Positions 3,559-28,361 of a stretch of 37,032 bases of DNA are shown here, one piece after another (position 1 is the stretch's first letter; each line of letters opens with the position of its first letter). Source of the DNA: Leptolyngbyaceae cyanobacterium RM1_406_9. Lineage in GTDB: Bacteria; Cyanobacteriota; Cyanobacteriia; Elainellales; Elainellaceae. The translations under genes and the position numbers were made by a program. The notes below the pieces were generated by a model. It searched no databases and was not told the origin of the DNA. It saw nothing but the letters and a program-made list of their open reading frames with translations. The stretch spans positions 1 to 37,032 of the forward strand of contig JAAUQZ010000020.1 of the NCBI GenBank assembly GCA_012033355.1. Reading direction: 5' to 3'.

Positions 3559-5772
3559 TTAGGAAGACCTGAGATCTAAAGACTTTTTAAGTTTCTGAAG
3601 TTTGTCGCGATCGCTTCTTAACTCCTTCTGCAACCCCTCATACTCTAGAATACGCTTCCTGATAGGAGCCTGGTTTCTTTCTGTTTCGCTTGTGACGTGA
3701 GCCGTCTGGTGCTTGGCAACTTGAAGAATTTTTTCGACCCGTCCTTCTTCAACTTCTAGCGCTGTGGTCAGATTTTGCACCAGTTTTTCAACCAAACGAT
3801 TTTTAGCGAGAGCTTGATAATAGCTGCGTAGATTATTTCTAATCTTTTCTGCTTCCTTTTCTCGCTCTAAATCTCTATCTTCCTGATATAGACGAGTGAG
3901 AAATCTAAACAGAAAGTAGAGAACTACTAGTAGCACAACAGTTGAGACATAAGGAGAAGCCTTAAATGCATTCACAACGGGTGCCAGAATGTGCTGCATA
4001 ATCTGCCTTCTGCTGGCAACGCCTACCATACTCAGGAAGCTAAACATAAAGATGAATTGCATCCACTGGCTTCTAATTTTTTTCAGCATATAGACCATTG
4101 GGGATGCTTCTCGATATCGACTTTCACTCAGCGGCATTGCAAAAGCTTCTTCAAAAATCGTTTGGTTATCGATGTTCTGCTCCGGTTGAAAAAGTGAGCG
4201 ATTCAAGTCAACCGAAGGCACAGAATGAAGCATTTCATAGGCTTTTTTTAGAAGCTCTCTCAAGCTGTTTTGGGGAGACAAACAGAGTATTTCCCATTCT
4301 TCATCAGCCCACCAGCTTAGCTCAGAGCGACAAAAATTCATCAGAGCCGTATTTGCATCAATTGCTTTTTCCTCGACGGTTTCTGGTTTGAGTAGTTTAC
4401 GCTTAGCTCCCTTAGGTTCAACGACTTCAATCGTAGAAAACCGCAACTGAATATATTTCCGTCCTCGATACTTGACGATATGAGGCTTTAGCTGATCGAC
4501 AAATCGCCGAATTTTATAGGAGATGCTATTTTCGAGATAATCATCTAACAAATCAACTTTCGACTGTTTTAGCTTATCTTTTGCCTGCTTGAAAAATGTT
4601 GCTTTGTCATCCTGAATTTGCCTCAAAATGATGTCAACCTTTTCTTTGATTGGGGTTTGTCCTGGCTGTTTTAGCTTCGCCGCATCACGCTGAGTGCTTC
4701 TCACTAGCTTTTTTTCGTCTAAATCAAGCAATCTTTCAACTAAACCTAGCTGAGCTAAGACTTGAGTAGTCAACCGTTTAGCAAGAACATCCTCAGGTTT
4801 CCGTTTAACCAAAGACTGCAACACTTTGAAGAATTTTTCTTCCTGTTGAATTGCTGCATTGAATTGAGTTGCTGATGTGTCGGACTGGAGATTGCTCAGC
4901 GGTAGCCAGAAAACATCCAGCGGAGAAATTGATTGGAGCCAAGCATTGATAGACTGATGCAGATCGGCGGCTTGAGCAGGCTGATGGAGTGAATCTGATG
5001 AGTCTGCTATGACTAGAAGGTTAGTAAAACGAGCCGTACTAATCTTTTCGAGTAACTGTTGTTCAACTGCCGTAAGAACTGTATGGGGGTTCATCACCCA
5101 ACATAAAACATCACAATCTGTCACCAGGCTATCAACTCGCTCATTGTTAGAATCAACAACGGGTTGATATTCAAAAAATAGCTCTGGACTGGTTGCGGTG
5201 GGCGATGAAGCGCCGAGAGTGATGCGATCGCCCTCCATTAAAACCTGACAGTCCTGTACTTGCTGTTCATTCACATAGGTGCCATTTCTACTCAAGTCGC
5301 AAATTCGCCAACTCGTATGGGTTTGGTGAGAATCAGCTTCACAGGGCTGTATGTCGGCATGATATCCAGAAACCAGTACATACGAGTCAGGAATTAGGAT
5401 CTGACACTCTGGGTGCCGTCCGATCGCTAACTTCTCGGTGGTAAGAGGATAGCGCTGTGACAGAGCATTCGTTTGCAGAACTAAGGCTGCTGTGGGTTCT
5501 GGTTGAGTTAGCTGCACACTCGCTAGCGGTGTAACTTTAAACTGATAAGCTGCCGACAGGTCACAAGTCCTTAAAAGGTTATACAGCGCTGTTGCTGAGT
5601 TTGGATTGTGGCTCACAATTTGCAGCGTTAATTTCCCTGCTTGGAGAGAGAGTACACTTTTTTCTAACGTTTGAGCGATCGCCTCAAAGGTTTTATGCTG
5701 CTGGCTTCTAGCCGCGACAAACTGCTGAATTTCCTGAATATTTTTGACCAGTTTTTCAGATTTAACTGACAT
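3559..5772 (-). CDS. FHA domain protein with degenerate dynamin-like region and C-terminal transmembrane segments
   Basis: FHA signature LAIGRHPECQILIPDSYVLVSGYHADI...WRICDLSRNGTYVNEQQV...MEGDRITLG; coiled-coil; hydrophobic segments WMQFIFMFSFLSMVGVA and VSTVVLLVVLYFLFRFL. Confidence 0.75.
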   Translation of the reverse strand: MSVKSEKLVKNIQEIQQFVAARSQQHKTFEAIAQTLEKSVLSLQAGKLTLQIVSHNPNSATALYNLLRTCDLSAAYQFKVTPLASVQLTQPEPTAALVLQTNALSQRYPLTTEKLAIGRHPECQILIPDSYVLVSGYHADIQPCEADSHQTHTSWRICDLSRNGTYVNEQQVQDCQVLMEGDRITLGASSPTATSPELFFEYQPVVDSNNERVDSLVTDCDVLCWVMNPHTVLTAVEQQLLEKISTARFTNLLVIADSSDSLHQPAQAADLHQSINAWLQSISPLDVFWLPLSNLQSDTSATQFNAAIQQEEKFFKVLQSLVKRKPEDVLAKRLTTQVLAQLGLVERLLDLDEKKLVRSTQRDAAKLKQPGQTPIKEKVDIILRQIQDDKATFFKQAKDKLKQSKVDLLDDYLENSISYKIRRFVDQLKPHIVKYRGRKYIQLRFSTIEVVEPKGAKRKLLKPETVEEKAIDANTALMNFCRSELSWWADEEWEILCLSPQNSLRELLKKAYEMLHSVPSVDLNRSLFQPEQNIDNQTIFEEAFAMPLSESRYREASPMVYMLKKIRSQWMQFIFMFSFLSMVGVASRRQIMQHILAPVVNAFKASPYVSTVVLLVVLYFLFRFLTRLYQEDRDLEREKEAEKIRNNLRSYYQALAKNRLVEKLVQNLTTALEVEEGRVEKILQVAKHQTAHVTSETERNQAPIRKRILEYEGLQKELRSDRDKLQKLKKSLDLRSS

Positions 5773-5814: not shown

Positions 5815-8091
5815 TTAAGAACGCGAATCGAGGTGAGACATTTGCCAAAGTTTGATCGTTCTGTCCCAGCTTCCACTGGCTAGCGTTTGCCCATTGGGAC
5901 TAACCGCTACAGAATAAACTTTACTGGTGTGTCCTCTAAAGGTGTGAAGTAACTCACCTGTATATAAGTTCCAGAGCTTTACCGTATTGTCTGCACTGCC
6001 GCTAACTAGCGTTCGGCTATCGGGACTGACGGCGATCGCGTGAACTTCATTGAAATGTCCAGTGAGGGTATTGATTAATTCGCCACTGTGTAAATTCCAA
6101 ACTTTAACGGTGTGGTCTGCACTACCGCTGGCTAGCGTAGCTCCATTAGGGCTGATCGCGACGGCATGAACTTCTGCGGAGTGTCCTTTCAACTGATGCA
6201 GGAGTTCTCCTGTCGGTAAGCTCCAAACCTTTACGGTATTATCTGCGCTGCCGCCAACCAGCAGCCAGCCGTCTGAACTGATATCTAGTGAGGAAATCGG
6301 GGCTGTATGTCCTATGAGATCGTTTAACAGTTCGCCCGTTTGTAAGTTCCAAATTTTAATCGTGTTATCTTCGCTGCTGCTCACTAAGGTTTGTCCATCT
6401 GGACTCATGACGATCGCTGAAATCGTCCAGGTATGAGCTCTTAGCGTGTGCAGCAGTTCTCCAGTTTCAAGATTCCACACTTTAATGGTGTTGCCCATAC
6501 TGCTGCTAGCTAGGAATTGCCCATCGGCACTGGTGGCGATCGCTGGACTTTCTCCCGATCCGTCTGTCAAAGTTTGAATCGGCTGTTCTAAGACAACATC
6601 CCAAACTTTGATGGTTTTGTCTGTACTGGCGCTGGTAAGGGTTTCTCCATCTGCGTTGAAGGCGATCGCCGTAACCATTGAAGAGTGCCCTGTGAGCGTT
6701 GAAATCAATCGTTCATCCCGCTGTTCACTGAACTCAGTAAATTGTGAGTTGCGAGAAGAGTCTGAACCCGCCAGAAACCCAACAAAAATAGTTGTCCCAA
6801 TTAGCATCAGCCCAACTCCAGCAAGTCGAGAGATTATTTTAGGCTTGAGCAAACCCTTAAGGTTACACAATCGCTGATAAATTTTGACTTGCGGTGCTTG
6901 ATCGGGTTCCAATTGGCGAGTGGATGTCAGCAGTTGTTCGGTTTCTCGCTGCCGTCGCTCCGTTTTGGATGTTTCGTCAGATGGAAACAGATCTGGCAAA
7001 GGTCGCGAAAAAGGTTCTGCTTGAGGGAGAGCAGGTTTTACTTGAGTTGGGGTATAGCTAGAAGCTACTGCTGACGGCAATGCAGGAGCAGGGGAAGTAA
7101 TCTTTGGTGTAGACGCAGCATGATCTGGTGCAGCATGACCAAGTTGTTCTAAATTGTGTACGACTTCTGCTGCGGTTTGGTAGCGGTCTTTCCAACTGTA
7201 GCGGGTCATAGTCGTTAGGATGGCTGCTAGTTCAGGGCTAACTTGTGTTTGCTGTGTCCAAAGTACTTCGGTAACACGCAGGTTTTCCTCAAAGTTGCGG
7301 GGGTGAAGCCCTGTCAATGCCTGAATGCAAATCATGCCCAGAGCATAGATATCACTATTGAGGCAGGGTCTACCCCGAATCTGCTCTATGGGGGTGTATC
7401 CTGCACTGTTAATTGCAACCGTCACATTACTTTGTTGAGATACGATATCTCCCGTAGATGATTTCACCAGTGCAGTTTGAACCTGTTTGACTGCGCCAAA
7501 GTCAATCAAGACGAGCCGATTATCGAGTTGGCGACGGATAATGTTTTCTGGCTTAATATCTCGATGAATGATGCCATGATCATGTACGAACGCCAAAATG
7601 CTCAAAACTTCCTTGAGAAGCTGAATGACTTGAGACTCAGACCAGCGATCGCCCTTCTCCTGATCTGGTGTGGCAGATTCAAAAGAAGCATCCCTAGCCA
7701 CCAATTCCAGGCTGAGTGGATGTCCTTCAATAAACTCCTGCACCAAATAGAACTCCCGATCTTTCTCAAAGTGTGCCAGCAGTCGCGGAATCTGGTCATG
7801 ATGTCCCAGCTTTTCTAGCGTTTCTGCTTCGTTGCTAAATAAACGTCTGATATTATTCAAACTATCAAGTTCGGCTGTTGCCAGTGATTTGAGGCGTTTG
7901 ACCACACATTTAGGATGACCAGGACGGCGAGTGTCCTGAGCGATGTAAGTTTCTCCAAAGCCGCCACTGCCAAGTTTGTCAATTACCTGATATCGCCCGT
8001 CTAACAGTTCGTTGAGGGCAGACGGTTGTACTGATGGTAAACCTTTGGAAGTATCAAGACTGGTAGGCATAAAATAATATTCCCCATACAC
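5815..8091 (-). CDS. Ser/Thr protein kinase with C-terminal WD40 repeats
   Basis: Kinase motifs YQVIDKLGSGGFGETYIAQD, HGIIHRDIKPENII, LIDFGAVKQV; TM segment; multiple WD units such as LTGHSSMVTAIAFNADGETLTSASTDKTIKVWD. Confidence 0.92.
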   Translation of the reverse strand: MYGEYYFMPTSLDTSKGLPSVQPSALNELLDGRYQVIDKLGSGGFGETYIAQDTRRPGHPKCVVKRLKSLATAELDSLNNIRRLFSNEAETLEKLGHHDQIPRLLAHFEKDREFYLVQEFIEGHPLSLELVARDASFESATPDQEKGDRWSESQVIQLLKEVLSILAFVHDHGIIHRDIKPENIIRRQLDNRLVLIDFGAVKQVQTALVKSSTGDIVSQQSNVTVAINSAGYTPIEQIRGRPCLNSDIYALGMICIQALTGLHPRNFEENLRVTEVLWTQQTQVSPELAAILTTMTRYSWKDRYQTAAEVVHNLEQLGHAAPDHAASTPKITSPAPALPSAVASSYTPTQVKPALPQAEPFSRPLPDLFPSDETSKTERRQRETEQLLTSTRQLEPDQAPQVKIYQRLCNLKGLLKPKIISRLAGVGLMLIGTTIFVGFLAGSDSSRNSQFTEFSEQRDERLISTLTGHSSMVTAIAFNADGETLTSASTDKTIKVWDVVLEQPIQTLTDGSGESPAIATSADGQFLASSSMGNTIKVWNLETGELLHTLRAHTWTISAIVMSPDGQTLVSSSEDNTIKIWNLQTGELLNDLIGHTAPISSLDISSDGWLLVGGSADNTVKVWSLPTGELLHQLKGHSAEVHAVAISPNGATLASGSADHTVKVWNLHSGELINTLTGHFNEVHAIAVSPDSRTLVSGSADNTVKLWNLYTGELLHTFRGHTSKVYSVAVSPNGQTLASGSWDRTIKLWQMSHLDSRS

Positions 8092-8383: not shown

Positions 8384-8671
8384 ATGAAATCTTCTCTCAT
8401 TTTGACCGCAGTAACAGTAGTATTTCTCCAACTCTTTTGGTTAATTCCATTCCTGTCAGGAGTTTGGGGACTCTGGTACGGGTGGCGAATGATATCTGAC
8501 CCAAGCTTTGCTCATACAGAGGCAGATATGTGGCTGCGTTCCCAGGAAATTGCTGAAGTCCCAACAACTCATTGGAATAAGCCACGATTTGTCGATGCAC
8601 TGTGTCATATCACAGTCGGACCCATAGGAGTCGCAATGGGAATGTGGCTATTCCTGCAACAGATCGGTTGA
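8384..8671 (+). CDS. Small membrane protein (95 aa), unknown function
   Basis: Hydrophobic N-terminus LILTAVTVVFLQLFWLIPFLSGVWGLWYGW and C-terminus HITVGPIGVAMGMWLFLQQIG; ATG start. Confidence 0.55.
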   Translation: MKSSLILTAVTVVFLQLFWLIPFLSGVWGLWYGWRMISDPSFAHTEADMWLRSQEIAEVPTTHWNKPRFVDALCHITVGPIGVAMGMWLFLQQIG

Positions 8672-8708: not shown

Positions 8709-9596
8709 ATGTCAGACATTACCGACTTAATTGATCAGAATATTGAGAAAATGAGGGAACTTTCGCAGGAGGGCGATCGCGCCCTTGAAGAAGTGAATGA
8801 ACTGGAAGAGTTAATCGACACGCTGAGCGAAAACTTAGCGTCTAAAGAACAGGAAACACTCTCCGGTTTTGAAACCCTCAGTCAACGCCTGGAAACGCTA
8901 GAACAACAGTTGTCAACTGAAATTCAAATGGCAAAAGATAGCCTCAGCCCGATTCAAGAAGCCGCTCAGGGAATTGAAACTCAACTCACTGGATTTGCTG
9001 AAATGATTCGCGGTCAGCTTAGTGAACTGCAAAGCAGCGCTGAGGAAATGATGAGTGAAATCGAAGCGAAGGCGACTGAAATTCAGCAAAATTTAGATAC
9101 GATGACCACTCAGGCAGAGGAATTTGGCTCTGAAGTAGACACGCTGGAAAATGAAGCGGTCGCAGAGATTGACGGCATGAAAGAATCGGTCGTGTCCGTT
9201 CGCAGTGAGTTTACCCAAAGTCAAACCCAACTCACCGATGAGTTTACCGCTTTGATGGAACTGATTGGCGAAAAATTAGAAACCCTGCAAGCAGATTTTG
9301 AGCATTTGATTGAAACCAGTAACACTGAACTAGGTGAACTGGATGTGGCTCTGGAAACGTCTGCCAGTGATGCGTTCACAACTATCCAAGAAAAGTTCAA
9401 TGAGATTGGTGAAGGAATCACTACTTCGGCCCAAGAGTTGGTAGAAGCGGTTGCAGCAGTTGGAGAAGAGGCAGTGACGGATTGTGAAGAAATGAGCGAT
9501 CGCTTTGGCGACATTATCGATAAATGTGGCGATGTAGTTGCCATTATCCAAGAAATGATGCCCACGCTGGAAAACGTTGAAGAAACGTTGGGATAG
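8709..9596 (+). CDS. Long acidic coiled-coil protein CC1 (295 aa)
   Basis: Heptad-rich, acidic, almost proline-free sequence (ELIDTLSENLASKEQETLSGFETLSQRLETLEQQL...); ATG start. Confidence 0.7.
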   Translation: MSDITDLIDQNIEKMRELSQEGDRALEEVNELEELIDTLSENLASKEQETLSGFETLSQRLETLEQQLSTEIQMAKDSLSPIQEAAQGIETQLTGFAEMIRGQLSELQSSAEEMMSEIEAKATEIQQNLDTMTTQAEEFGSEVDTLENEAVAEIDGMKESVVSVRSEFTQSQTQLTDEFTALMELIGEKLETLQADFEHLIETSNTELGELDVALETSASDAFTTIQEKFNEIGEGITTSAQELVEAVAAVGEEAVTDCEEMSDRFGDIIDKCGDVVAIIQEMMPTLENVEETLG

Positions 9597-9612
9597 AAGT
9601 AAGGAGTCCTAT

Positions 9613-9713
9613 CTCGTTCCAATGCTCTGCATTGGAATGCCAATGGAGGCTCTGCCTCCTCAAACTAGCGGCAGAGCCGCTTGGCTAGGATTCCCAGGCC
9701 CCGCCTGGGAACC
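9613..9713. repeat. Dispersed cyanobacterial-type intergenic repeat (CTCGTTCC...GGAGGCTCTGCCTCC...GGCAGAGCC...CCTGGGAACC)
   Basis: Nested inverted-repeat segments; related copies at 13915..14018 and 26543..26592. Confidence 0.7.
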
Positions 9714-9762
9714 AGATTAACTAGATTGATTGTTCACTTATGCTTAAACGGAGAAACTCATC

Positions 9763-10746
9763 ATGGCTGAAGTGGTTGAACTCAATACTAATGTTGAAGA
9801 AACTTCGGATGTGCTAGAACGATTGCTCACGACGCTGGAGCAGGCGTGTGGAGACTTTCGAGAGCTAGCGACGGAACTGGAGTCGGAAACAGAAGAATTG
9901 CGTCAGGGCGATGAGTTAGATAGCCAGCTAGAAGCGCTGGAGCAAAGTTTATCTGATGCAGATAGTCAACTGGAAACAGCAGAAACAGAACTCACGTCCG
10001 CTTTAGATGAGTTGGAAGGGGCGATCGCCGACATCTCCACCGAACTCGAAGAGGCAAACGGCACCCTCACCGAAATGCGGGGAGAATTTGAAGAACTCAC
10101 CACCGCTATCACCGAATTTGAGACAGAAATGACCGAAGCTCAACAGGCATTAGGCACCTTTGAAGGAGCAGTCACTCAGCTTGAGGATGGCTTAACAGAG
10201 GCAATTCAGACGACTCAGGAAGCCTTTGAAACCCTGGAGCAAACCATCACCGAAGCTGAAACCCAGATAGACACTTTCTCTGAAATTGAAACGGATATTG
10301 ATGAGTTAGTCAGTGAACTGCGCGACACTCATCGAGAAGCGATCGAAACTGACTTTGACGAACTCAGCGAAGAGTTACGAAGCACCCATTCTGAAGCAAT
10401 CACTACTGCCAGTAACGACTGTGAAACTAGCATCAAAGACCTGTTTGAAACCTTCAGCAACTTTGTGAGTGAAGTAATCGAGCAGTATGAACAAGATGTC
10501 ACCGAGACGATCTCAGGACTCGCAGATGAGTGCGAAAACACCCACAAAGTTGCAGTTGGCGAAGCAACAGAAGAAGTGACAGGTGGAGCCGTTGAAGAAA
10601 TTGAAGGTGAAGCGGAAGAAACCAAAGGCGAAATGGAAGAAGCCCTATCTGTAATGAGTGAACTTGACCCACTGACTCAAGAAGTCGTTACCGCTGCAAA
10701 TGTGATGGTTGCTGCTAACACAATGGTCGAAGAAATGCTGGCTTAA
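9763..10746 (+). CDS. Long acidic coiled-coil protein CC2 (327 aa)
   Basis: Heptad-rich Glu/Leu/Thr sequence throughout; ATG start. Confidence 0.7.
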   Translation: MAEVVELNTNVEETSDVLERLLTTLEQACGDFRELATELESETEELRQGDELDSQLEALEQSLSDADSQLETAETELTSALDELEGAIADISTELEEANGTLTEMRGEFEELTTAITEFETEMTEAQQALGTFEGAVTQLEDGLTEAIQTTQEAFETLEQTITEAETQIDTFSEIETDIDELVSELRDTHREAIETDFDELSEELRSTHSEAITTASNDCETSIKDLFETFSNFVSEVIEQYEQDVTETISGLADECENTHKVAVGEATEEVTGGAVEEIEGEAEETKGEMEEALSVMSELDPLTQEVVTAANVMVAANTMVEEMLA

Positions 10747-10881
10747 GTACATCAAGTTATAGGGTGTGTTAGGCAAAGCTGTAACATACCACCCTAGAAG
10801 GCTTGGGTGCGTTACGCTACCGCTAACACATCCGCACCGAATGCAAAACCAACGAAGCAAAAACACAAGTACATAAGGGGA

Positions 10882-11322
10882 ATGAAAACTGTGAGCGTAC
10901 AAAATTTAATTAGCCGCATCGAAACAGCTAGAAGTAATCTTCAAGGAGCAAAAACTCAGTTGTTTAGTTCAAGGGCAATAAATCCTGCAAACATCACTAG
11001 CCTTCAAAATCCAGGAACTACGGAACCTTGTACTCCAGAACCTAAACCAGGTAGGGGAGAAGCAATACTGAAGGGGGCTTTGGCCGGTGCAGGGACAGGG
11101 GCTGTGGTTGGTGTAGGGGCTGGAGTAGCAATAGGTGTTGCTCCAGCAGCCACTGGAGTTGGTGCTGTAGCAACACCTATAACCGTCCCTCAAGGTATAG
11201 TTGCAGGTGGAATTATTGGAGCAGGTATAGGGGCTGGAGTAGGAGCAGTTGGCGGCTTACTATACTACGAGATAGATGCTATACCCGATGAGGGATGCCC
11301 TACGTTGCCACCCACACTGTAA
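10882..11322 (+). CDS. Glycine-zipper protein GZ1 (about 146 aa); start revised from ORF track 10807
   Basis: MKTVSVQNLISRIETARSNLQ... then ALAGAGTGAVVGVGAGVAIGV and GIVAGGIIGAGIGAGVGAVGGLL. AAGGGG lies upstream of ATG 10882; the 10807 extension runs into repeat-like sequence. Confidence 0.6.
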   Translation: MKTVSVQNLISRIETARSNLQGAKTQLFSSRAINPANITSLQNPGTTEPCTPEPKPGRGEAILKGALAGAGTGAVVGVGAGVAIGVAPAATGVGAVATPITVPQGIVAGGIIGAGIGAGVGAVGGLLYYEIDAIPDEGCPTLPPTL

Positions 11323-11413
11323 TAAACTACTAGTGCAAGTCTGGTTAGTTTTCTCTTGCAGTAAACCTTTTTAATAGAAAGCTAGTAGAGCGGGCATTGC
11401 CTACTCTACAATC

Positions 11414-11770
11414 AAAATTCTGCCTCAGAGCGTGAGTTGTTGAGTTCAGAATATGACGGTTTAGCCTCAGAACCCAAAGTTTCACCTTTGGAAATCAAAA
11501 TTTCTCCTCCAGAACAGAAAATTTATCCTTCGGAGCAGAAAACTTTGGGATCAAAGCAGTAAATTTCTCCTGCGGAAGTCAAAATTTCTCCTTCAAAGGC
11601 TAAAACTTTGGGTTCAGAGTAGTAAATTTTGAGGCCGGAATAGCAAATTTCAGGTTCAGAAGCTCAATGGTTGCGATCACCACTCAAAAATTTCTTCTCT
11701 AAACAGCAACGATTGAGTTCAAAATGCCATCGTTCGGGTTTCCAAGCTTGAACCTTGAAAGTTTCTAAGT
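11414..11770. repeat. Degenerate 21-bp tandem repeat array (about 17 units), noncoding
   Basis: Consecutive 21-mers aligned without gaps: AAATTTCTCCTCCAGAACAGA / AAATTTATCCTTCGGAGCAGA / AAACTTTGGGATCAAAGCAGT / AAATTTCTCCTGCGGAAGTCA / AAATTTCTCCTTCAAAGGCTA / AAACTTTGGGTTCAGAGTAGT, and so on. Confidence 0.85.
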
Positions 11771-11805
11771 CCAGCATTTCTCACAATTCATTAGAGGTAA
11801 TTACC

Positions 11806-12726
11806 ATGAGTGAAGCAACCAGTTCTTTGGAACAGTTAGCAACGGATTTACCTGAAAAACTGAGGCTTCTCACCGAGGAAGCAAGTGCAGTTCAGGAGGA
11901 AATCAATACGTTTGAAGAAAGTTTGAGTGGAATGCAGGAGGAGTTTAGCGGACTAATCGATCAAATTGAAACCAGTTTGGATGAGTTGCAATCGGAAGTA
12001 ACAGAGCATCAGACCGAACTGACCGAAAGTATCTCTGATTTGGGCAGTGAATTTGAGAATTTGCAGAGTGAGGTGATGAGCGATCGCACTGAACTTGAAA
12101 CCGAACTGCAAGAAGCTCAAACCAAACTCACCGAACTCAATACCAGTCTAGAAGAAGGGCTATCATCTCTTTCAACTGCGGGTGAAACGGCTCTCAATAC
12201 CTTGAATGAGGGGCAGGGCAAACTTCAGGGTGGTCAGCAGCAGCTTGATCAGGTGGTAGATACGGTTGAGGAAAGTGTAGATACGGCTCAACAGGTAATT
12301 GGAACGGCAACGAGTGCGATCGCCGAAGATATTTCTCAAGCGACCGATGCTTTAGAGGAAGCCAACAGAGAAATCGATACCGCAGTACAGGAAGTGGTAG
12401 ACGAACTTTCTAACTTAGATGAGTTAAGTAATGAGTTGACTACTCTTCAAGACAGCACCGTCCAGACCGAAATCAATTCTTTACTGGAGACAGCCAGAGA
12501 ATCAGTTGACACTCTGGGAACCAACATTGAAGATGCCCTGGAAAAAGTCACTAGTGCTGTTCAAGAAACGGGTTCAGAATTGTCTGGTACGGAGGTCAAC
12601 ATCTCCGCTGAGCGGGAAGAGTTGAGCGGTTTAGTCGATCAGCTACGAGAGTTAATCGAACCGCTGCGCCAGGGTGTCACCAGTGCCCAAGATGCGGCGG
12701 ACAAGCTGGGCATTCCCTGGGGGTAA
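11806..12726 (+). CDS. Long acidic coiled-coil protein CC3 (about 306 aa); start revised from 11755
   Basis: MSEATSSLEQLATDLPEKLRLLTEEASAVQEEINTFEESL..., heptad-rich; ATG 11806 follows AGAGGTAATTACC; ends DAADKLGIPWG. Confidence 0.7.
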   Translation: MSEATSSLEQLATDLPEKLRLLTEEASAVQEEINTFEESLSGMQEEFSGLIDQIETSLDELQSEVTEHQTELTESISDLGSEFENLQSEVMSDRTELETELQEAQTKLTELNTSLEEGLSSLSTAGETALNTLNEGQGKLQGGQQQLDQVVDTVEESVDTAQQVIGTATSAIAEDISQATDALEEANREIDTAVQEVVDELSNLDELSNELTTLQDSTVQTEINSLLETARESVDTLGTNIEDALEKVTSAVQETGSELSGTEVNISAEREELSGLVDQLRELIEPLRQGVTSAQDAADKLGIPWG

Positions 12727-12846
12727 GGAACGTGCAAACTGCCTCTACAAAATTCATGGCTTAAACCAGTACATCGTGTGAATTACCCTAATTAAGACCT
12801 TACACCAGTGGCAGCAGGTGTTGCACTAGCGCCTTGAGATCAATCT

Positions 12847-12960
12847 CAGGCTCAAAGCTGAAACTCGTTAAAACGAGTTGGAATGGTCTTCTAGTCCGCG
12901 TTTGAGTCAGTTTCAATTGACTTAAGCTGTTAGCCCGGAATTGATTCCAGGGCGGGGCAT
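12847..12960. repeat. Dispersed intergenic repeat with CTCGTTAAAACGAG hairpin
   Basis: AACTCGTTAAAACGAGTTGGAATGG...CAATTGACTTAAGCTGTTAGCCCGG, resembling a repeat type I recall as common in cyanobacterial intergenic DNA. Confidence 0.45.
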
Positions 12961-13012
12961 TGGGTAACAAATTAGTTCGGTGCAAGATCTCAGCTAACTA
13001 AGGAGAAAACTC

Positions 13013-13897
13013 ATGAGTGACTTACAAACCCTTGCGGGTGAAACCGTTAACAAGCTTTCAACACTGGCAGATGCCACCGAAACAACTCAGACTAAACTCA
13101 CCGATGTCAAAACTGAACTCACTCGAATTCGGCAGGCGGTTGATGAGGCTTGGGAAACCCTGAGCGATCGCGCTCAATCCCTCATCGAACAGGTAAACGA
13201 AGGCAAAACAGAACTTGCGGCTGAAGTAGAGACTGTCACTCAGGTAATTACTCAGCTAAAGCAAACCATCGACACCACGCAAAGTGAGTTAACCCAGGAA
13301 TTGGAAACAACGAAGGGGGCGATCGCCGCCATCGACGATAGGCTAGCCGAACTGGACATGGAAAGTGACATCACCGAAGCCGAGGAAGCCCTGAGTAACC
13401 TGGGTGAGAAGGAAATTGGCACTGAAGTTGAAGAAGCGATCGGGCAGGCGATCGAAGAACTCAACGGCTTCAATGGCGAACTCACTGCCTTTGAATCGAG
13501 CTTGGAAGGTCAGGTAGATGGGCTGGAATCTACCATCACTGAGCAGGCTGTACCTGCTATTGAAGGCGGAGCGCAATCCATCTCTGATCATTTTGATACT
13601 GCAATTGAACACTTCAACACTTCCATTCAAACGGTTTCAGACGGCATGGAGGAGTCTATTCAAGGATTGACGGAGGAAGTTAGCACCTCACAGGATGAGT
13701 TGTTGACCGAATTGGAAGGCACTGGCACTCAACTTGATGAGATGATGACCCAGTTGGAAGGAGCTATTGAAACGGCAAAAACCAGTGTCGTAGATGCTAC
13801 AGAAGCTCTGGTAGAAGGCATTGAACTCAGCAATGAGAGCTGTCAAAAAGCAGTAGAAGTGCTAACGGAATCCAGAGACGCTTTGGAAGCAATCTAA
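13013..13897 (+). CDS. Long acidic coiled-coil protein CC4 (294 aa)
   Basis: Heptad-rich sequence MSDLQTLAGETVNKLSTLADATETTQTKLTDVKTELTRI...; AAGGAG upstream of ATG. Confidence 0.7.
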   Translation: MSDLQTLAGETVNKLSTLADATETTQTKLTDVKTELTRIRQAVDEAWETLSDRAQSLIEQVNEGKTELAAEVETVTQVITQLKQTIDTTQSELTQELETTKGAIAAIDDRLAELDMESDITEAEEALSNLGEKEIGTEVEEAIGQAIEELNGFNGELTAFESSLEGQVDGLESTITEQAVPAIEGGAQSISDHFDTAIEHFNTSIQTVSDGMEESIQGLTEEVSTSQDELLTELEGTGTQLDEMMTQLEGAIETAKTSVVDATEALVEGIELSNESCQKAVEVLTESRDALEAI

Positions 13898-13914
13898 CTT
13901 CCTAGACATCTAAA

Positions 13915-14018
13915 CTCGTTCCGAGGCTCTGTCCTAGAATACAGGCTTAGAGGTGCTTCCTGAAAATCAAGTGGCAGAGCCACTCAAAAGGCATTCCCAA
14001 GTGAAGCCTGGGAACGAG
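13915..14018. repeat. Dispersed intergenic repeat, second copy (CTCGTTCC...GGCAGAGCC...GCCTGGGAACGAG)
   Basis: Outer arms CTCGTTCC / GGAACGAG and inner GGCAGAGCC match the copy at 9613..9713. Confidence 0.6.
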
Positions 14019-14105
14019 GAAACCTTCAAAACAAAGATTGAGGAACTTGGCGAAACCAGCATAGCACTAGCTTGTCTTTGTTTACCTATTAAGAAGACTG
14101 AGATC

Positions 14106-14981
14106 ATGAGTGTAGATAATTTAATGTCTCGTATTGATGCAGCGAGAGATCGAGTCCGAGAAGTCAGAGAAGAGGCGCTTGCAGCCACTGGTGGCATTAA
14201 AGGAATAATAGCGGCATCACTAATACTTGAGTGGCAAGCTAGTAAGGTGACCTATGAGCTAAAGGAGGATCATAAGAAGATCACAGCGAGAAATAGAAGT
14301 GCATTTATGAGAGAACAACGACATCTTGCTGCCGATCCGTCCCATCCATTACATGGTCTCCTCAATGACGGCAGATATCATGCAAAGCCAGTAGCTTTAC
14401 AGGCAGGTCACACTGTAACTCGTGATGGTCTGGTTAAATCGCTTAGTGGTGAGCTAGAGACATTTGCGTTGGAGGAGGCAATTCCCAACAATTATGATAG
14501 TCGTGCGGAAGGGCGAGGAGAGGTACTCAAGAAAACAGTTCTAGACATTGGCGGTTCTCCTGTCGAACTGACAACTGCACGGATACTCGCAGGAACTGGC
14601 TTAGTCAACGTTAACATAGTCGCAAATGCTCCGGAGCGTCCAGGAGTGCCTGCGTCTAATTCCCTTTTCACTGAGTCTATACCGGATGCTGCTGGAAGCA
14701 GCCAACTTCGAGGCATTCTTCGAGGAGGAAGTAAAGCTTTGGGACCGCTGGGTGCAGCCGTGGATCTTTATTATCTTGGTGATGCGATCGCGAAAGACAG
14801 TGGCACTTTTGGAGAAAACACTAGGACAACCGTAGGTGGAATTGCAGGAGGCTGGGGTGGTGCCGCTGCTGGAGCCGCAATTGGTTCTTTGATCTTTCCA
14901 GGTGTTGGCACAGTTGTGGGAGGCATTATTGGAGGAGTTGGTGGTGGTTTGCTAGGTGAATCTATAGGCGGGCTTTTCTAG
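14106..14981 (+). CDS. GZ2: N-terminal NLMSRIDAAR motif, polymorphic-toxin type 5-like region, C-terminal glycine zipper (about 291 aa); start revised from 13953
   Basis: MSVDNLMSRIDAARDRVRE...; LQAGHTVTRDG...TFALEEAIPNNYDSRAEGRGEVLKKTVLDIGGSPVELTTARILAGTGLV...VANAP; GGIAGGWGGAAAGAAIGSLIFPGVGTVVGGIIGGVGGGLLGESIGGLF. The 13953 extension reads through a dispersed repeat. Confidence 0.6.
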   Translation: MSVDNLMSRIDAARDRVREVREEALAATGGIKGIIAASLILEWQASKVTYELKEDHKKITARNRSAFMREQRHLAADPSHPLHGLLNDGRYHAKPVALQAGHTVTRDGLVKSLSGELETFALEEAIPNNYDSRAEGRGEVLKKTVLDIGGSPVELTTARILAGTGLVNVNIVANAPERPGVPASNSLFTESIPDAAGSSQLRGILRGGSKALGPLGAAVDLYYLGDAIAKDSGTFGENTRTTVGGIAGGWGGAAAGAAIGSLIFPGVGTVVGGIIGGVGGGLLGESIGGLF

Positions 14982-15055
14982 GGAGATACTCGAAATGCCT
15001 GATAGACGATGAGCAGCTTTTGAACTTGAACATTGAGTAATTAGGTGGAAAACTC

Positions 15056-15757
15056 ATGAATAAAACTGTTGATATGCGACAATTTGAGCTTGTTTTGGCG
15101 GTAGAGAAACATAATCCAGTACTTCTGAATCCTGAAGTCCTAAAAACCAAAGGAATCATTCCTCCTCATTGGGAGTTGGCTCAGCCACCGACCTATAACG
15201 AAGGTGTTGCTTTAACGATCTTCCAAAATGGAGTGTATATTGCTCATAGAGGCAATGCGATCGCCTTCTTCGAGGACATTAGAGTAAAAACTCTCGATGA
15301 GTTAGAAGTCCCTGAAGTAGTTTACAGATATGTTGAAAAGCTGCCACAGGAATACTATCAGGCAGTAGGGCTGAACCTGGAAGGGCATACTTTATTTGAT
15401 GGTAAGGATACAGCAAAAAGTTATCTTCAGGAGATATTTTCTAGTGGCGATCGCACCCATCCCTCTGATCAAAATCTGGTGCAAGCGATCGCCAACTTCA
15501 TTTACAAGATTAATAGAGGAGTAATGACTCTCACAGTGCGAAATACAGAGCTACAGCTTTCAGAAACAGAACAGACTCCAGTACTTCTGTTTGCTGCCAA
15601 CTTTCATCGTGATTTGTCTAAAATCCCTGAAGCAGAACGAGTTCAGGAATTATCTGAAACGATTGAGAATTGGCGGGACGATGTAGAAACCTATCAAGAT
15701 ATTGTCAACAACAAATTCTTGGCTCAAGACAACAGGTTAGCAAGTTCTGCTTACTAA
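15056..15757 (+). CDS. Hypothetical protein (233 aa); possible immunity/partner gene of GZ2
   Basis: ATG ORF 74 bp after GZ2, same strand; no family recognised. Confidence 0.6.
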   Translation: MNKTVDMRQFELVLAVEKHNPVLLNPEVLKTKGIIPPHWELAQPPTYNEGVALTIFQNGVYIAHRGNAIAFFEDIRVKTLDELEVPEVVYRYVEKLPQEYYQAVGLNLEGHTLFDGKDTAKSYLQEIFSSGDRTHPSDQNLVQAIANFIYKINRGVMTLTVRNTELQLSETEQTPVLLFAANFHRDLSKIPEAERVQELSETIENWRDDVETYQDIVNNKFLAQDNRLASSAY

Positions 15758-17440: not shown

Positions 17441-17502
17441 ACCTGTCCTAGTGAATAGTGCAAAATCGAAATAATCCCTCCTGTAACCCTAAATTCCTGG
17501 TT

Positions 17503-18224
17503 ATGCTCGAATCTGATTCTTTAAAGTTTGGCTTTCGGAAGCCCACCCAGGCTTTCTTAAGGTTCTTCAAAAGGCTGTTAAGTTCCCGCTGGCGATCGCT
17601 GGTGCTGCTGATTTTGGGAGTCTATTTGCCGCTGTTGGCGTTTGAGATGTTAGCGCTGAAAGTCAGAACCCATGAAGCCGGGTTTCCCTGGGATGTATCT
17701 GTTTTGCTGGCGATTCACAAAACGGCTCATCCCTACCTGGATGTGTTTGCGGCTTGGTTTACTAAGTTAGGGGTGTATTGGGGTGTGTTTCCCTTTGCCG
17801 CTGTGATAGGAGTGATTCTGTTAAGACAAAGACAGTGCGATCGCTTGCTTATTTACTGACCACTCTTTTAGGCAGCACTGCAATTAACATTACCGCCAAA
17901 GGAGTGATGCACCGGATTCGCCCTCATCTGTGGGAATCACTCTATCCAGCGGCATCAGGGTTTGCCTTTCCCAGCGGACACGCAATGGCAAGTATGTCTC
18001 TGATTGCAGCATTGGTGATTTTGACTTGGGGAAGCCGCTGGCAGTGGTGGGTGTTAATCGGTGGCGGACTGTTTGTGTTGGCAATTGGTTGGACAAGGAT
18101 TTATTTGGGAGTTCACTATCCCAGTGATATCTTGGCAGGGTGGCTGGTTTCAGTTGGCTGGTCTGCTGGTGTGAGTGTAATCATCAGACCTCATCTGCAA
18201 AAGTCAGTGGTTGACTCGTTCTAA
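17503..18224 (+). CDS. PAP2-superfamily phosphatase, split by an apparent frameshift near 17838
   Basis: N-terminal half 17503..17859; second frame carries KGVMHRIRP, FPSGHAMASM and TRIYLGVHYPSD, the three PAP2 motifs. Confidence 0.8.
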
Positions 18225-18912: not shown

Positions 18913-20021
18913 TTACTCTGCCCTTTGCCACAATCGAATTACTTCTGCCAGAGTCTGAGTATCAGGTGGAGCAGTCACTTGTCCAGAAGGATTTACCTGT
19001 GCGCCGGGGATATTTTGGCTCCAGGGGCTATTGGGAACGGACTGGAGATTGAGGGATTGATCAATGGGACGAAAGCCGTACTGCACAAATACAGCCTGCT
19101 GTTCTGGGGCGGTGAGGAAGTCTAGAAACGTTTGGGCGGCTTTGGCAGTGCGATCGCCTACATCGCGTCTGACAATTGCCGCTGTAGAGACTGTTTCAAC
19201 GGTTGGATTGAGGTAAAAGATCTGATATGGGTTGCCCTGCGTGGTTGCGGACTGCTGCCAGCGATAGAGGGCAATACTTTCATAAACGGTGGCAACGTCA
19301 GCATCGTTTGGGCCGCTAGTGATAAATTCTTGCAGCAAAATGTCTGTGGAGCGGGGTGGCTGATAAACCGATTGTTTCACTAGGCTGATGAGTGGGGCGA
19401 TCGCCGGATTGCTCAAACTAGCTACATTCAACTCACCATTAATTTAGACTGTGCCATCAGTCCGAGCGTAAGCTGACCGCTATTTGAGCGGGTTGGGTCA
19501 GTGGTGACAAAATCGAAGCTGCCCCACTCTTCTGAGCCACCGATTGCTGCCCAATTGCCTGCCTGAAGCGCCTGCTCTAGTCGCTGCCAGTTAAACTCCC
19601 CATTTGGGAAAAGTATTTGCCCCCGGTCAGCCCAGGCAATGCCGACAAGTATTGTTTTGGCAACGGGGCGAGGTGAGTCATAGAATGGTTCACTGTTGTT
19701 TTGCGCCTGCCAGCGATCGCTTAACTCATTCAGCAACTCACCGTTTGCCGGAATCAGCACGGTTGGCTGAAAGGTATTGGTGTCATCAATATAACGATTA
19801 ACGATATCCTGAGATCCTTGAAACTCAAGCTCTAGACGAATTGCAGGATATTCCTGCTCAAATCGGGTTTCTAGTGCTGACAGGGGTTCCTGAAGTTCGG
19901 TGCCACTCACCACAACAATCGTTTGCTGACTGCTCAGAGTGGGGGCGTAGGTTAAACCCAGCGCACCCAGGGCAATACCAATCGAGAGAATCAGGGAACG
20001 GCGTTTAGATTTAGCGTTCAT
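18913..20021 (-). CDS. Extracytoplasmic substrate-binding protein, split by an apparent 1-nt deletion (ORFs 19428..20021 and 18913..19431)
   Basis: Signal/TM-like N-terminus; PTRSNSGQLTLGLMAQSKL joins NGELNVASLSNPAIAP...YESIALYRWQQ if one base is restored. Confidence 0.75.
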
Positions 20022-26681: not shown

Positions 26682-28361
26682 TTATAGCATCACGCCTGCA
26701 AACTTGAGGAAATCACCAATCGTGCGAATCTCGCTGCCATTTGGCAATTTCACTCCTTTACTAGGCTCCCATCGTTGACCGTTGTAGTCACGCTGATTCA
26801 AGTAAGAAGCAGGGTCATGCATCATCAGTCCAATGAATGTCTCAGCAACCAGGCGGCTACCCACTTCACCCAATGTCTCTCCTTTCGCCCGAACCTCGGA
26901 TTCTTTGAGAATGTAAAACCAGGCAGGTGTCTTCTCTAGGAAAGGTTCCAGCGCTTGATTCATTGCGTCGGAGTTGTCCTGCTTGAGTTCTTCTGGGGTT
27001 AGCTTCGGTACCCCCAATTTCGCCGCCAAACTTTGTCCAGTAGGAATGCTGAGTAAATAGCCACGCAGCAGGTTGCGCTTTGCCAGGTGCTTCAACAGTT
27101 CCTTGATCATCGGGGAGGATTCATCTTCTCCCTCATTGATCATGGTGGACAAAGGTGGAGTCAGGCGGGTGTCAATTTTGCGGGCAGAACGAGTTTGCCG
27201 CTCTTCAGCAGCAGCTTTATCCACAAATCGATCCCACTCAATGATCCAGTTGAAGGGCAGGGTATCGTTGGCACCGGGACCGTTGCGCTCACCGATGTTG
27301 CCTCTGCCTGTGAAGGAAAATAGTAGTTCAAAGCTGGCGCTGGGAATCAGAACAGCTTCGCGCCCAAAGTTGCGATTGTAGTCATAGGCAGCCCGCACCA
27401 TGCTGTGACCAAAGCGATAGGCTGCGACGGAGAACTCTAAAGGCATGAAGATATCGCGATGTCTCAGGTCGTAAAATTTCAGCCCGCTGTTCAGGATGTT
27501 GTCTACTGTTCCATTTACAGTCAGGGTTTTGAGGAAGTCGTTCACGACAAGCCACTGATGGTGCCAGCGAACCAGATTTTGCGATCGCTCAAACAGTCCA
27601 TGCTCATCCTTGAAGCTCTTAGGTTCGTTAGTCCGTACCCAATCCACCACCGCATTGTGGAAACGCAGGAAGGCCGTGTGAAGCTGAGCAACAATCAGGT
27701 TTTCGTCGTTGCGGCTGTCGCCAATGATGGCGTTTCTATCTTTACGGGGTAGGTCGCGCATCAGGTCGTCCACTGGCGGAATTTTATCTCCTGGAACATC
27801 GTTGCCCGCAGAGTCTTTGAGTGCGTTTTGACCAATTCTCAGTTTTACTGGATCTTCTTCCTGGTAGAAGTCTTTTGCCTCGGTTGGATTGGCCGGATTC
27901 AGAGTTGGGCCATCTCCGTAAACGCTGTCTAGATCAAACACGGGGCGGCGCAAGTTCTTCAGCTTTTCGGTCACGAAATCGGGTGCTAGAGGCTGAAAGT
28001 CATCTTTGGTGATGTCAGTTTGCAAATCTTGGGAAGCGCGATCGGTGTTAGCCGTCACATCATGGTCGATGAATTGTCCCCAATAGGTATAAACCGGGGG
28101 AATTTTGGAGTTAGCGTCCTCTGGATCAATAGGCGCTTGGGCATCGATCATGGCGTTGCCCAGGTCTTTTAGCTTGGCGATGGTGTCTGCTGGATTGTCT
28201 GCCGGAAGCAGGCTGTGGGGATCTGTGGATAGGTCGGGGAAAAGGTAATTAAAGTCTGTTTCTACGTCGATCGCCGATGCGCCAGTTCCCTGAGTTGTTC
28301 TTTCTACAAACTTTTCTCGAATGTAACCGCCATGACTAAATTGAAAAGGAATCTTTCGCAT
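26682..28361 (-). CDS. Animal-type haem peroxidase family protein
   Basis: YTYWGQFIDHDVT (distal His), LRIGQNA..., AAYRFGHSMVRAAYDYNRNF (proximal His). Confidence 0.88.
   Translation of the reverse strand: MRKIPFQFSHGGYIREKFVERTTQGTGASAIDVETDFNYLFPDLSTDPHSLLPADNPADTIAKLKDLGNAMIDAQAPIDPEDANSKIPPVYTYWGQFIDHDVTANTDRASQDLQTDITKDDFQPLAPDFVTEKLKNLRRPVFDLDSVYGDGPTLNPANPTEAKDFYQEEDPVKLRIGQNALKDSAGNDVPGDKIPPVDDLMRDLPRKDRNAIIGDSRNDENLIVAQLHTAFLRFHNAVVDWVRTNEPKSFKDEHGLFERSQNLVRWHHQWLVVNDFLKTLTVNGTVDNILNSGLKFYDLRHRDIFMPLEFSVAAYRFGHSMVRAAYDYNRNFGREAVLIPSASFELLFSFTGRGNIGERNGPGANDTLPFNWIIEWDRFVDKAAAEERQTRSARKIDTRLTPPLSTMINEGEDESSPMIKELLKHLAKRNLLRGYLLSIPTGQSLAAKLGVPKLTPEELKQDNSDAMNQALEPFLEKTPAWFYILKESEVRAKGETLGEVGSRLVAETFIGLMMHDPASYLNQRDYNGQRWEPSKGVKLPNGSEIRTIGDFLKFAGVML

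What the first reader, a model, noticed from the sequence alone, without database searches (positions are those of the whole stretch)
8709..15757. Duplicated module: two long coiled-coil genes followed by a glycine-zipper gene, twice in tandem, then a candidate immunity gene
Seven consecutive plus-strand genes follow the order CC1-CC2-GZ1 / CC3-CC4-GZ2 / 233-aa protein. The four CC proteins are of similar size (about 294-327 aa), acidic, nearly proline-free and heptad-rich, with no enzymatic domain I recognise. Each pair precedes a small protein ending in a glycine zipper (membrane-inserting or pore-like). The repeated syntax suggests a functional unit, for example helical carriers or alpha-helical toxin-like partners loading a membrane-active effector. 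The functional part is inference.
Basis: partly seen in the sequence, partly recalled or inferred. Interest (0 to 1): 0.85.

Follow-up and report, generated by a model that had tools for sequence, protein, structure and literature searches.

The report
Cyanobacterial toxin cassette with coiled-coil quartet
Four ancient coiled-coil genes in some cyanobacteria form a fixed frame around interchangeable toxin genes whose products share one short N-terminal tag, which looks like an undescribed polymorphic-toxin system whose delivery route is unknown.

Summary
The genes are real, but the reading changes. CC1-CC4 are not a pair duplicated in tandem. They are four separate orthologous families, collinear in all loci that can be read in full and each one clade (99-100% bootstrap); six genomes have them with no toxin insert. 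In the window's genus and six other named cyanobacteria, the space between CC2 and CC3 (and after CC4 in the window's genus) holds exchangeable toxin cassettes: Ntox5 (the window's GZ2), DUF6973, Peptidase_C39, PT-HINT and Amidase_6, some with partner genes (one is SUKH-1). The cargo proteins share only a ~30-aa N-terminal helix. In 386 cyanobacterial genomes this tag occurs 3 times, always in the slots; in ten chosen genomes, 16 of 16 matches do. The 233-aa gene is not cognate immunity: it stays 81-95% identical while the toxin beside it is replaced, and its relatives sit beside giant Ig/RHS proteins on plasmids. Kinase genes flank all 16 loci and FHA genes 14. Best explanation: a polymorphic toxin system in which the acidic coiled-coil quartet recognises the tagged toxins. 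The genetics is well supported; tag-CC binding and export are inferred. No matching description was found in profile libraries or the papers searched.

The parts
3559..5772 (-). FHA-domain protein (737 aa; FHA, helical region), constant neighbour
   Evidence: PF00498 E=8.9e-14; orthologue beside the cluster in most loci
5815..8091 (-). Ser/Thr kinase-WD40 protein, constant neighbour
   Evidence: kinase and WD40 repeats in translation; related gene beside the cluster in all 16 loci
8384..8671 (+). 95-aa small membrane protein, first gene of the array in the window's genus
   Evidence: max 19-residue hydropathy 2.28; 96- and 98-aa orthologues in the same place in the two congeners
8709..9596 (+). 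CC1, acidic coiled-coil protein, orthologous family 1
   Evidence: collinear orthologues, one clade with 100/99 support
9763..10746 (+). CC2, acidic coiled-coil protein, orthologous family 2; upstream border of cargo slot 1
   Evidence: 60-aa CC2-tail remnant found between cassettes in CCT1
10882..11322 (+). GZ1, slot-1 cargo: N-terminal tag (about 10882-10977) plus glycine-rich hydrophobic region, no recognised enzyme domain
   Evidence: tag profile trained on other genera E=7.8e-11; 6.8e-14 genome-wide; clear orthologue just before CC3 in M33_DOE_097 and, essentially identical, in SM1_4_3
11410..11703 (.). degenerate repeats of 21-bp period between GZ1 and CC3
   Evidence: the same period in the same place in M33_DOE_097
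11806..12726 (+). CC3, acidic coiled-coil protein, orthologous family 3; downstream border of slot 1
   Evidence: 81-aa CC3-head remnant between cassettes in P. tenue
13013..13897 (+). CC4, acidic coiled-coil protein, orthologous family 4
14106..14981 (+). GZ2, slot-2 cargo: tag (14106-14192), Ntox5 toxin domain (about 14397-14633), C-terminal glycine zipper (about 14832-14978)
   Evidence: tag E=1.1e-4 with the independent profile; PF15543 25.7 bits against cut-off 25; zipper kept and middle replaced in congeners
15056..15757 (+). 233-aa conserved accessory protein of slot 2, not cognate immunity
   Evidence: 81-95% identical in congeners with other toxins; relatives on 22 cyanobacterial plasmids, in most of those opened beside giant Ig/CARDB/HINT genes

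Best explanation
This is a polymorphic toxin locus of a kind not found described. The constant part is an array of four different acidic coiled-coil proteins (CC1-CC2-[slot 1]-CC3-CC4-[slot 2]) with a Ser/Thr kinase and, in nearly all loci, an FHA protein nearby. The variable part is cargo toxins that differ from strain to strain and share only a ~30-residue N-terminal amphipathic helix (L-[IM]-x-R-[IV]-[DE]-x-A-[RK]), with or without a partner gene. Most likely the quartet assembles in the cytoplasm into a helical scaffold that binds the tag, keeping toxins together and ready for release or transfer to competing cells. Kinase and FHA protein would control this by phosphothreonine signalling. 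New cassettes enter by recombination with borders in CC2, CC3 and the zipper. Shown: four orthologous families, collinearity, cassette exchange, shared tag, tag confined to the slots, linkage to kinase and FHA. Inferred: tag-CC binding, regulation, toxicity, export (route unknown).
For: Four families, collinear: reciprocal best hits (weakest for CC2 in G143), gene order in all loci, single clades with 98-100% support. Cargo exchange: FACHB-471 DNA is about 85% identical to the window through CC2, CC3 and CC4, has no match at 10745-11757 or 13897-14831, and matches again from 14832 inside the zipper into the 233-aa gene. Slot-2 middles show no significant similarity (E>=0.06). Toxin domains: Ntox5, DUF6973, Peptidase_C39, PT-HINT, Amidase_6; SUKH-1 partner. 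Tag: a profile trained without the window's genus puts GZ1, both FACHB-471 cargo proteins and GZ2 above all other untrained ORFs of 678; 3 of 3 hits in 386 genomes and 16 of 16 in ten genomes lie in the slots. Recombination scars: CC2-tail and CC3-head remnants between cassettes. Kinase at 16/16 and FHA gene at 14/16 loci.
Against: No toxicity, binding or secretion has been measured. No secretion machine is encoded in the array itself, and no CC or cargo protein has an evident Sec signal. Six genomes, and FACHB-63, carry the quartet without tagged cargo, so the quartet has some other or older job. The window's Ntox5 match is only just above the family cut-off, GZ1 has no recognised toxin domain, and slot-2 toxins have no obvious dedicated immunity gene. 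Structure models of CC4 and the 233-aa protein were too poor to use (mean pLDDT 46 and 42).
Confidence: 0.6

Rival explanations
1. The CC quartet is a kinase/FHA-regulated intracellular scaffold or filament, and the tag anchors toxins to it for use inside the cell (programmed death or phage defence); nothing is exported.
For: Six genomes and FACHB-63 have the quartet with kinase/FHA neighbours but no toxin; no signal peptides or export gene in the array; constant scaffold plus variable effector is the layout of multicellular-prokaryote conflict systems (PMC7159879).
Against: Exchange among relatives, SUKH-1 partner, HINT pretoxin domain and orphan cassettes are typical of intercellular polymorphic toxins. 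A peptidoglycan-type amidase (Amidase_6) would need to reach the wall.
Confidence: 0.25
2. The tagged toxins are payloads of a cyanobacterial contractile injection system encoded elsewhere; the tag is a tube-loading leader and the CC proteins are chaperones or adaptors for loading.
For: Contractile sheath genes (PF04984) in 9 of 9 genomes reached through the named loci, against 71 of 386 in the phylum and about 40% of cyanobacteria with a CIS cluster according to PMC8894136; absent in five of six toxin-free quartet genomes. Ntox5 was listed only with PVC export by Zhang et al. 2012 (PMC3482391).
Against: No sheath gene found in the window's own genome (83% complete). One toxin-free genome (G416) and FACHB-63 have one. 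No CIS gene lies in the loci. The nine genomes are related and large, so the excess is only suggestive.
Confidence: 0.2
3. CC1-CC4 are themselves alpha-helical pore-forming toxin subunits (ClyA/HBL/Mak type) that carry GZ proteins through membranes.
For: Four similar-sized helical proteins in one operon; weak profile matches to MakE/MakB and HBL.
Against: Those matches are far below the cut-offs (33 against 360 bits for MakE) and mixed with SMC, Rad50 and tropomyosin, as expected of any coiled coil. No CC protein has the hydrophobic segment such toxins need (best 19-residue mean 0.4-1.8).
Confidence: 0.05
4. The module is a recent tandem duplication of a CC-CC-GZ unit followed by an immunity gene (the original finding).
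For: Gene order in the window; the CC proteins are distantly similar to each other.
Against: Each CC is its own clade across 14-16 genomes, GZ inserts are absent from six genomes, and the 233-aa gene does not follow the toxin.
Confidence: 0.03

Closest known systems
[quoted passage not shown] 2012, PMC3482391)
   Same: Constant N-terminal trafficking segment, exchangeable toxin domains incl. Ntox5, HINT pretoxin domain, SUKH partner, displaced cassettes
   Different: The constant N-terminus is a bare ~30-aa helix matching no known trafficking domain; the constant genes are four coiled-coil proteins; slot-2 toxin domains lie between tag and a C-terminal zipper, not at the C-terminus
Type VII (T7SSb) LXG toxins with small helical partner proteins
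   Same: Works alike in outline: helical N-terminal tag, helical partner genes beside it, exchangeable toxin, immunity gene (resemblance from general knowledge)
   Different: No LXG or WXG domain above cut-off; partners are about 300-aa coiled coils; tag only about 30 aa; phylum is cyanobacteria
Extracellular contractile injection systems (eCIS/PVC; cyanobacterial CIS of PMC8894136)
   Same: Ntox5 listed as PVC-exported; sheath genes present in most genomes with tagged toxins
   Different: No CIS gene and no DUF4157 match in the window's cargo; cluster is not in a CIS locus
Cyanobacterial filament-forming coiled-coil-rich proteins (PMC7002697)
   Same: Coiled-coil-rich cyanobacterial proteins without enzyme domain
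   Different: Not compared by sequence here; no toxin cassette linkage known to me
Cyanobacterial giant Ig/RHS proteins on plasmids
   Same: They are accompanied by relatives of the 233-aa protein
   Different: Giant proteins, in one plasmid near a type I secretion operon; no CC array seen in the stretches opened

Membership tests
Polymorphic toxin system | Variable toxin domains joined to a constant segment in related strains | tested here: met
   Tag in 14+ otherwise unrelated cargo proteins; window, SM1_4_3 and FACHB-471 share CC and 233-aa genes but not slot-2 toxin middles
Polymorphic toxin system | Known toxin or pretoxin domains | tested here: met
   Ntox5 25.7 bits (cut-off 25); PT-HINT 62.5 (27.7); Amidase_6 85.7 (23.2); Peptidase_C39 48.7 (22)
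Polymorphic toxin system | Adjacent cognate immunity gene | tested here: inconclusive
   SUKH-1 partner in Myxacorys and variable partner genes in other slot-1 cassettes; none recognised for the window's GZ1 or GZ2
Polymorphic toxin system | Displaced or orphan cassettes produced by recombination | tested here: met
   CC2-tail remnant in CCT1 and CC3-head remnant in P. tenue, each between cassettes
Polymorphic toxin system | Toxin activity and neutralisation | not testable with these tools
   needs expression assays
T7SS LXG/WXG effector system | LXG or WXG100 domain | tested here: not met
   no LXG match; WXG100 only on CC3 at 19.0 bits, below cut-off 27.3
T7SS LXG/WXG effector system | EssC/YukB FtsK-type ATPase in the genome | not tested
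   only the genes around the cluster were read
eCIS cargo | Encoded in or next to a CIS locus | tested here: not met
   no CIS gene seen in 16 loci; sheath genes elsewhere in 9/9 genomes, none found in own genome
ClyA/HBL/Mak alpha-pore-forming toxins | Hydrophobic membrane-inserting segment and family profile score | tested here: not met
Zorya ZorA | MotA/ExbB membrane domain | tested here: not met
   PADLOC matches only to the coiled-coil tail; no membrane span in CC1-CC4
Ntox5 (for GZ2) | Curated Pfam cut-off | tested here: met
   25.7 against 25 bits, narrow

The most novel reading that the evidence does not exclude
The coiled-coil quartet with its kinase and FHA protein is an undescribed, phosphorylation-controlled protein delivery apparatus of cyanobacteria, and the short N-terminal helix is its secretion signal; toxins are one class of cargo, and the toxin-free genomes use it for something else.
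Probability: 0.3. Interest if true: 0.92.

Novelty: new variant of a known kind. Interest (0 to 1): 0.76.

Why it matters
Polymorphic toxins are normally tied to known secretion routes by recognisable N-terminal domains. Here the constant segment is a bare 30-residue helix, and the only constant partners are four acidic coiled-coil proteins with kinase and FHA neighbours. If the tag is a delivery signal, this is a route of toxin traffic, or a way of holding toxins ready, that has not been described in cyanobacteria. The tag is short and diagnostic, so it can be fused to a reporter and tested directly. The locus also gives a clean natural record of cassette exchange between species of one genus.

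Tried and rejected
Domain scans of the CC proteins return dozens of weak coiled-coil matches (apolipoprotein, SMC, Rad50, MakE, ZorA, LmuB); I treat these as composition, because none with functional meaning passes its cut-off (a few generic helical models such as ApoLp-III do). The finding's tandem-duplication reading was tested with trees and dropped. The 233-aa gene as immunity was dropped. The OPX/PCP export pair (PF02563, AAA_31) behind CC4 looked like a candidate export channel, but it is adjacent only in one group of loci, and the window's genome has only distant OPX relatives (37% and less), so it is not a constant part. Plasmid searches with CC1 and CC3 found nothing; a viral-contig scan with CC4 found no relative, nor one with the 233-aa family. 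Structure models of CC4 and the 233-aa protein were too weak for fold search. Literature searches found no description of the system. DUF6973 is in no held paper.
Full report
What is there. The window lies in a 5.47-Mb, 404-contig cyanobacterial assembly, 83% complete. The extra GZ2 leader is dispersed repeat DNA. The four CC proteins are strongly acidic, almost proline-free, strongly heptad-periodic and without membrane spans.

The CC genes are four families, not a duplicated pair. Searches in relatives found CC1-CC2-CC3-CC4 in the same order and strand in 16 loci, counting one split over two contigs (SM1_4_3) and one contig that begins at CC2. Best hits go family to family, except that CC2 of the window and of G143 are too far apart for a clean reciprocal pair. 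A maximum-likelihood tree of 60 proteins gives each family as one clade with 99-100% bootstrap and 98-99% SH-aLRT; a thinned tree agrees with 98-100%. How the four families join is unresolved (AU p 0.24), so a very old pair duplication is possible, a recent one is not. In six genomes (G143, G153, G221, G185, G402, G416) the four genes are contiguous and no GZ gene is present. A CC3 profile finds the family in only 8 of 386 cyanobacterial genomes at E<=1e-20.

The slots hold exchangeable toxins. Between CC2 and CC3 (slot 1) lie: GZ1 in the window and, essentially identical, in SM1_4_3; a DUF6973 protein plus a 136-aa gene in FACHB-471; a Peptidase_C39 protein plus a 255-aa gene in CCT1 and FACHB-1515; a PT-HINT protein plus a 175-aa gene, then two more cargo genes, one with Amidase_6, in Phormidium tenue FACHB-886; a protein without a recognised domain plus a SUKH-1 gene in Myxacorys; and other cassettes in Phormidesmis priestleyi and M33_DOE_097, the last with a GIY-YIG-like protein (by eye only) and a GZ1 orthologue. 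After CC4 (slot 2, window's genus only) the window has an Ntox5 protein, FACHB-471 an unrecognised 309-aa protein and SM1_4_3 a protein that by eye resembles deaminase toxins. Their middles show no significant similarity, while the last ~85 residues are nearly the same. At DNA level, window and FACHB-471 match at about 85% through CC2, CC3 and CC4, not at all in 10745-11757 and 13897-14831, and again from 14832, inside the zipper, through the 233-aa gene (that output lists several loci together, and the FACHB-471 rows were recognised by their coordinates). Remnants of CC2 (60 aa, 75% identical to the intact copy) in CCT1 and of CC3 (81 aa, 86%) in P. tenue lie between cassettes, as expected if cassettes enter by recombination with borders in the CC genes.

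The tag. All cargo proteins begin with a ~30-aa helix of the pattern L-[IM]-x-R-[IV]-[DE]-x-A-[RK]. A profile built only from other genera and run on 678 ORFs gives GZ1 E=7.8e-11, FACHB-471 slot 1 1.7e-7, GZ2 1.1e-4 and FACHB-471 slot 2 1.5e-4, above every other ORF outside the training set; the SM1_4_3 slot-2 tag scores poorly with it (0.13). With all 15 tags, the profile finds 3 places in 386 genomes, all inside CC clusters, and 16 places in ten selected genomes, all inside or at the proper edge of the clusters; FACHB-63, which has the quartet but no cargo gene of this type, has none. The tag set was assembled from the clusters, so the second count partly repeats the training; the absence of hits elsewhere does not.

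The 233-aa gene. It is 81% identical in FACHB-471 and 85-95% in SM1_4_3, whose toxins differ. Relatives (about 27-38%) lie on 22 cyanobacterial plasmids. In the eight opened, most are next to giant genes annotated as Ig-domain, CARDB or HINT proteins, one near a type I secretion operon. This fits a chaperone or adaptor for the constant parts of large or zipper-ended proteins, not a cognate immunity protein. Its fold could not be modelled.

Neighbours. A Ser/Thr kinase gene lies within about 10 kb of the cluster at all 16 loci and an FHA gene at 14 (not G143, G153). These genomes have 7-19 FHA matches each, so chance linkage is unlikely, though the loci are not independent. An OPX/PCP export pair follows CC4 in six loci but is not linked in the window's genus.

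How it may work (inference). The CC proteins are very acidic and the tag carries conserved basic and leucine positions, so a coiled-coil or groove contact is plausible; no complex was modelled. Kinase and FHA protein suggest control by phosphothreonine. Export is open. Sheath genes occur in 9 of 9 genomes reached through the named loci, against 18% of the phylum sample and a published 40% (PMC8894136), but not in the window's incomplete genome, and also in FACHB-63, which has no tagged cargo. A purely intracellular role cannot be excluded.

Comparison with what is known. By its cargo this is a polymorphic toxin system (domains, HINT, SUKH, displaced cassettes: met). It is not filed under T7SS LXG (domain absent), eCIS (not in a CIS locus) or alpha-pore-forming toxins (no hydrophobic segment). 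PADLOC matches of the CC proteins are coiled-coil noise, and those of the kinase are kinase-domain matches. Searches of the paper library found no description; subscription papers and preprints are not held there.

Noticed in passing
window 11410-11703; L061 2882-3183: Degenerate repeats of 21-bp period lie between GZ1 and CC3 in the window and in the same place behind the GZ1 orthologue of M33_DOE_097; they seem to travel with the cassette.
   Followed up: partly
L019-L026 (plasmids): The 233-aa family is an unannotated companion of giant Ig/CARDB/HINT genes on cyanobacterial plasmids; one such gene spans about 34 kb (Gloeothece PCC 7822, CYAN7822_RS39750). It has no named domain.
   Followed up: partly
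L041, L042, L043, L054 behind CC4: In G143, G153, G221 and G185 further coiled-coil genes follow (about 300, 526-553 and 308 aa, in two genomes also 298 aa); the 526-553-aa one starts M[ED]I[ST]EKAKK[IV]VASS. The array is larger there.
   Followed up: no
L060 6768-7637: FACHB-63 has a 289-aa glycine-rich protein without any profile match between CC1 and CC2 and no tagged cargo: perhaps a third insertion site.
   Followed up: no
window 18913-20021 (-): Two adjacent ORFs match the first and last part of one solute-binding protein profile (PF13531), so the gene is split by a frameshift or an assembly error.
   Followed up: no
window 17458-18224 (+): Two overlapping ORFs read like one PAP2-type membrane phosphatase broken by a frameshift (by eye from the translations).
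   Followed up: no
window 9605-9730 and 13910-14040: GC-rich intergenic stretches, the second read through by the GTG-started GZ2 ORF, with similar copies elsewhere in the genome.
   Followed up: partly
window 26682-28361 (-): Animal-type haem peroxidase gene (PF03098).
   Followed up: no
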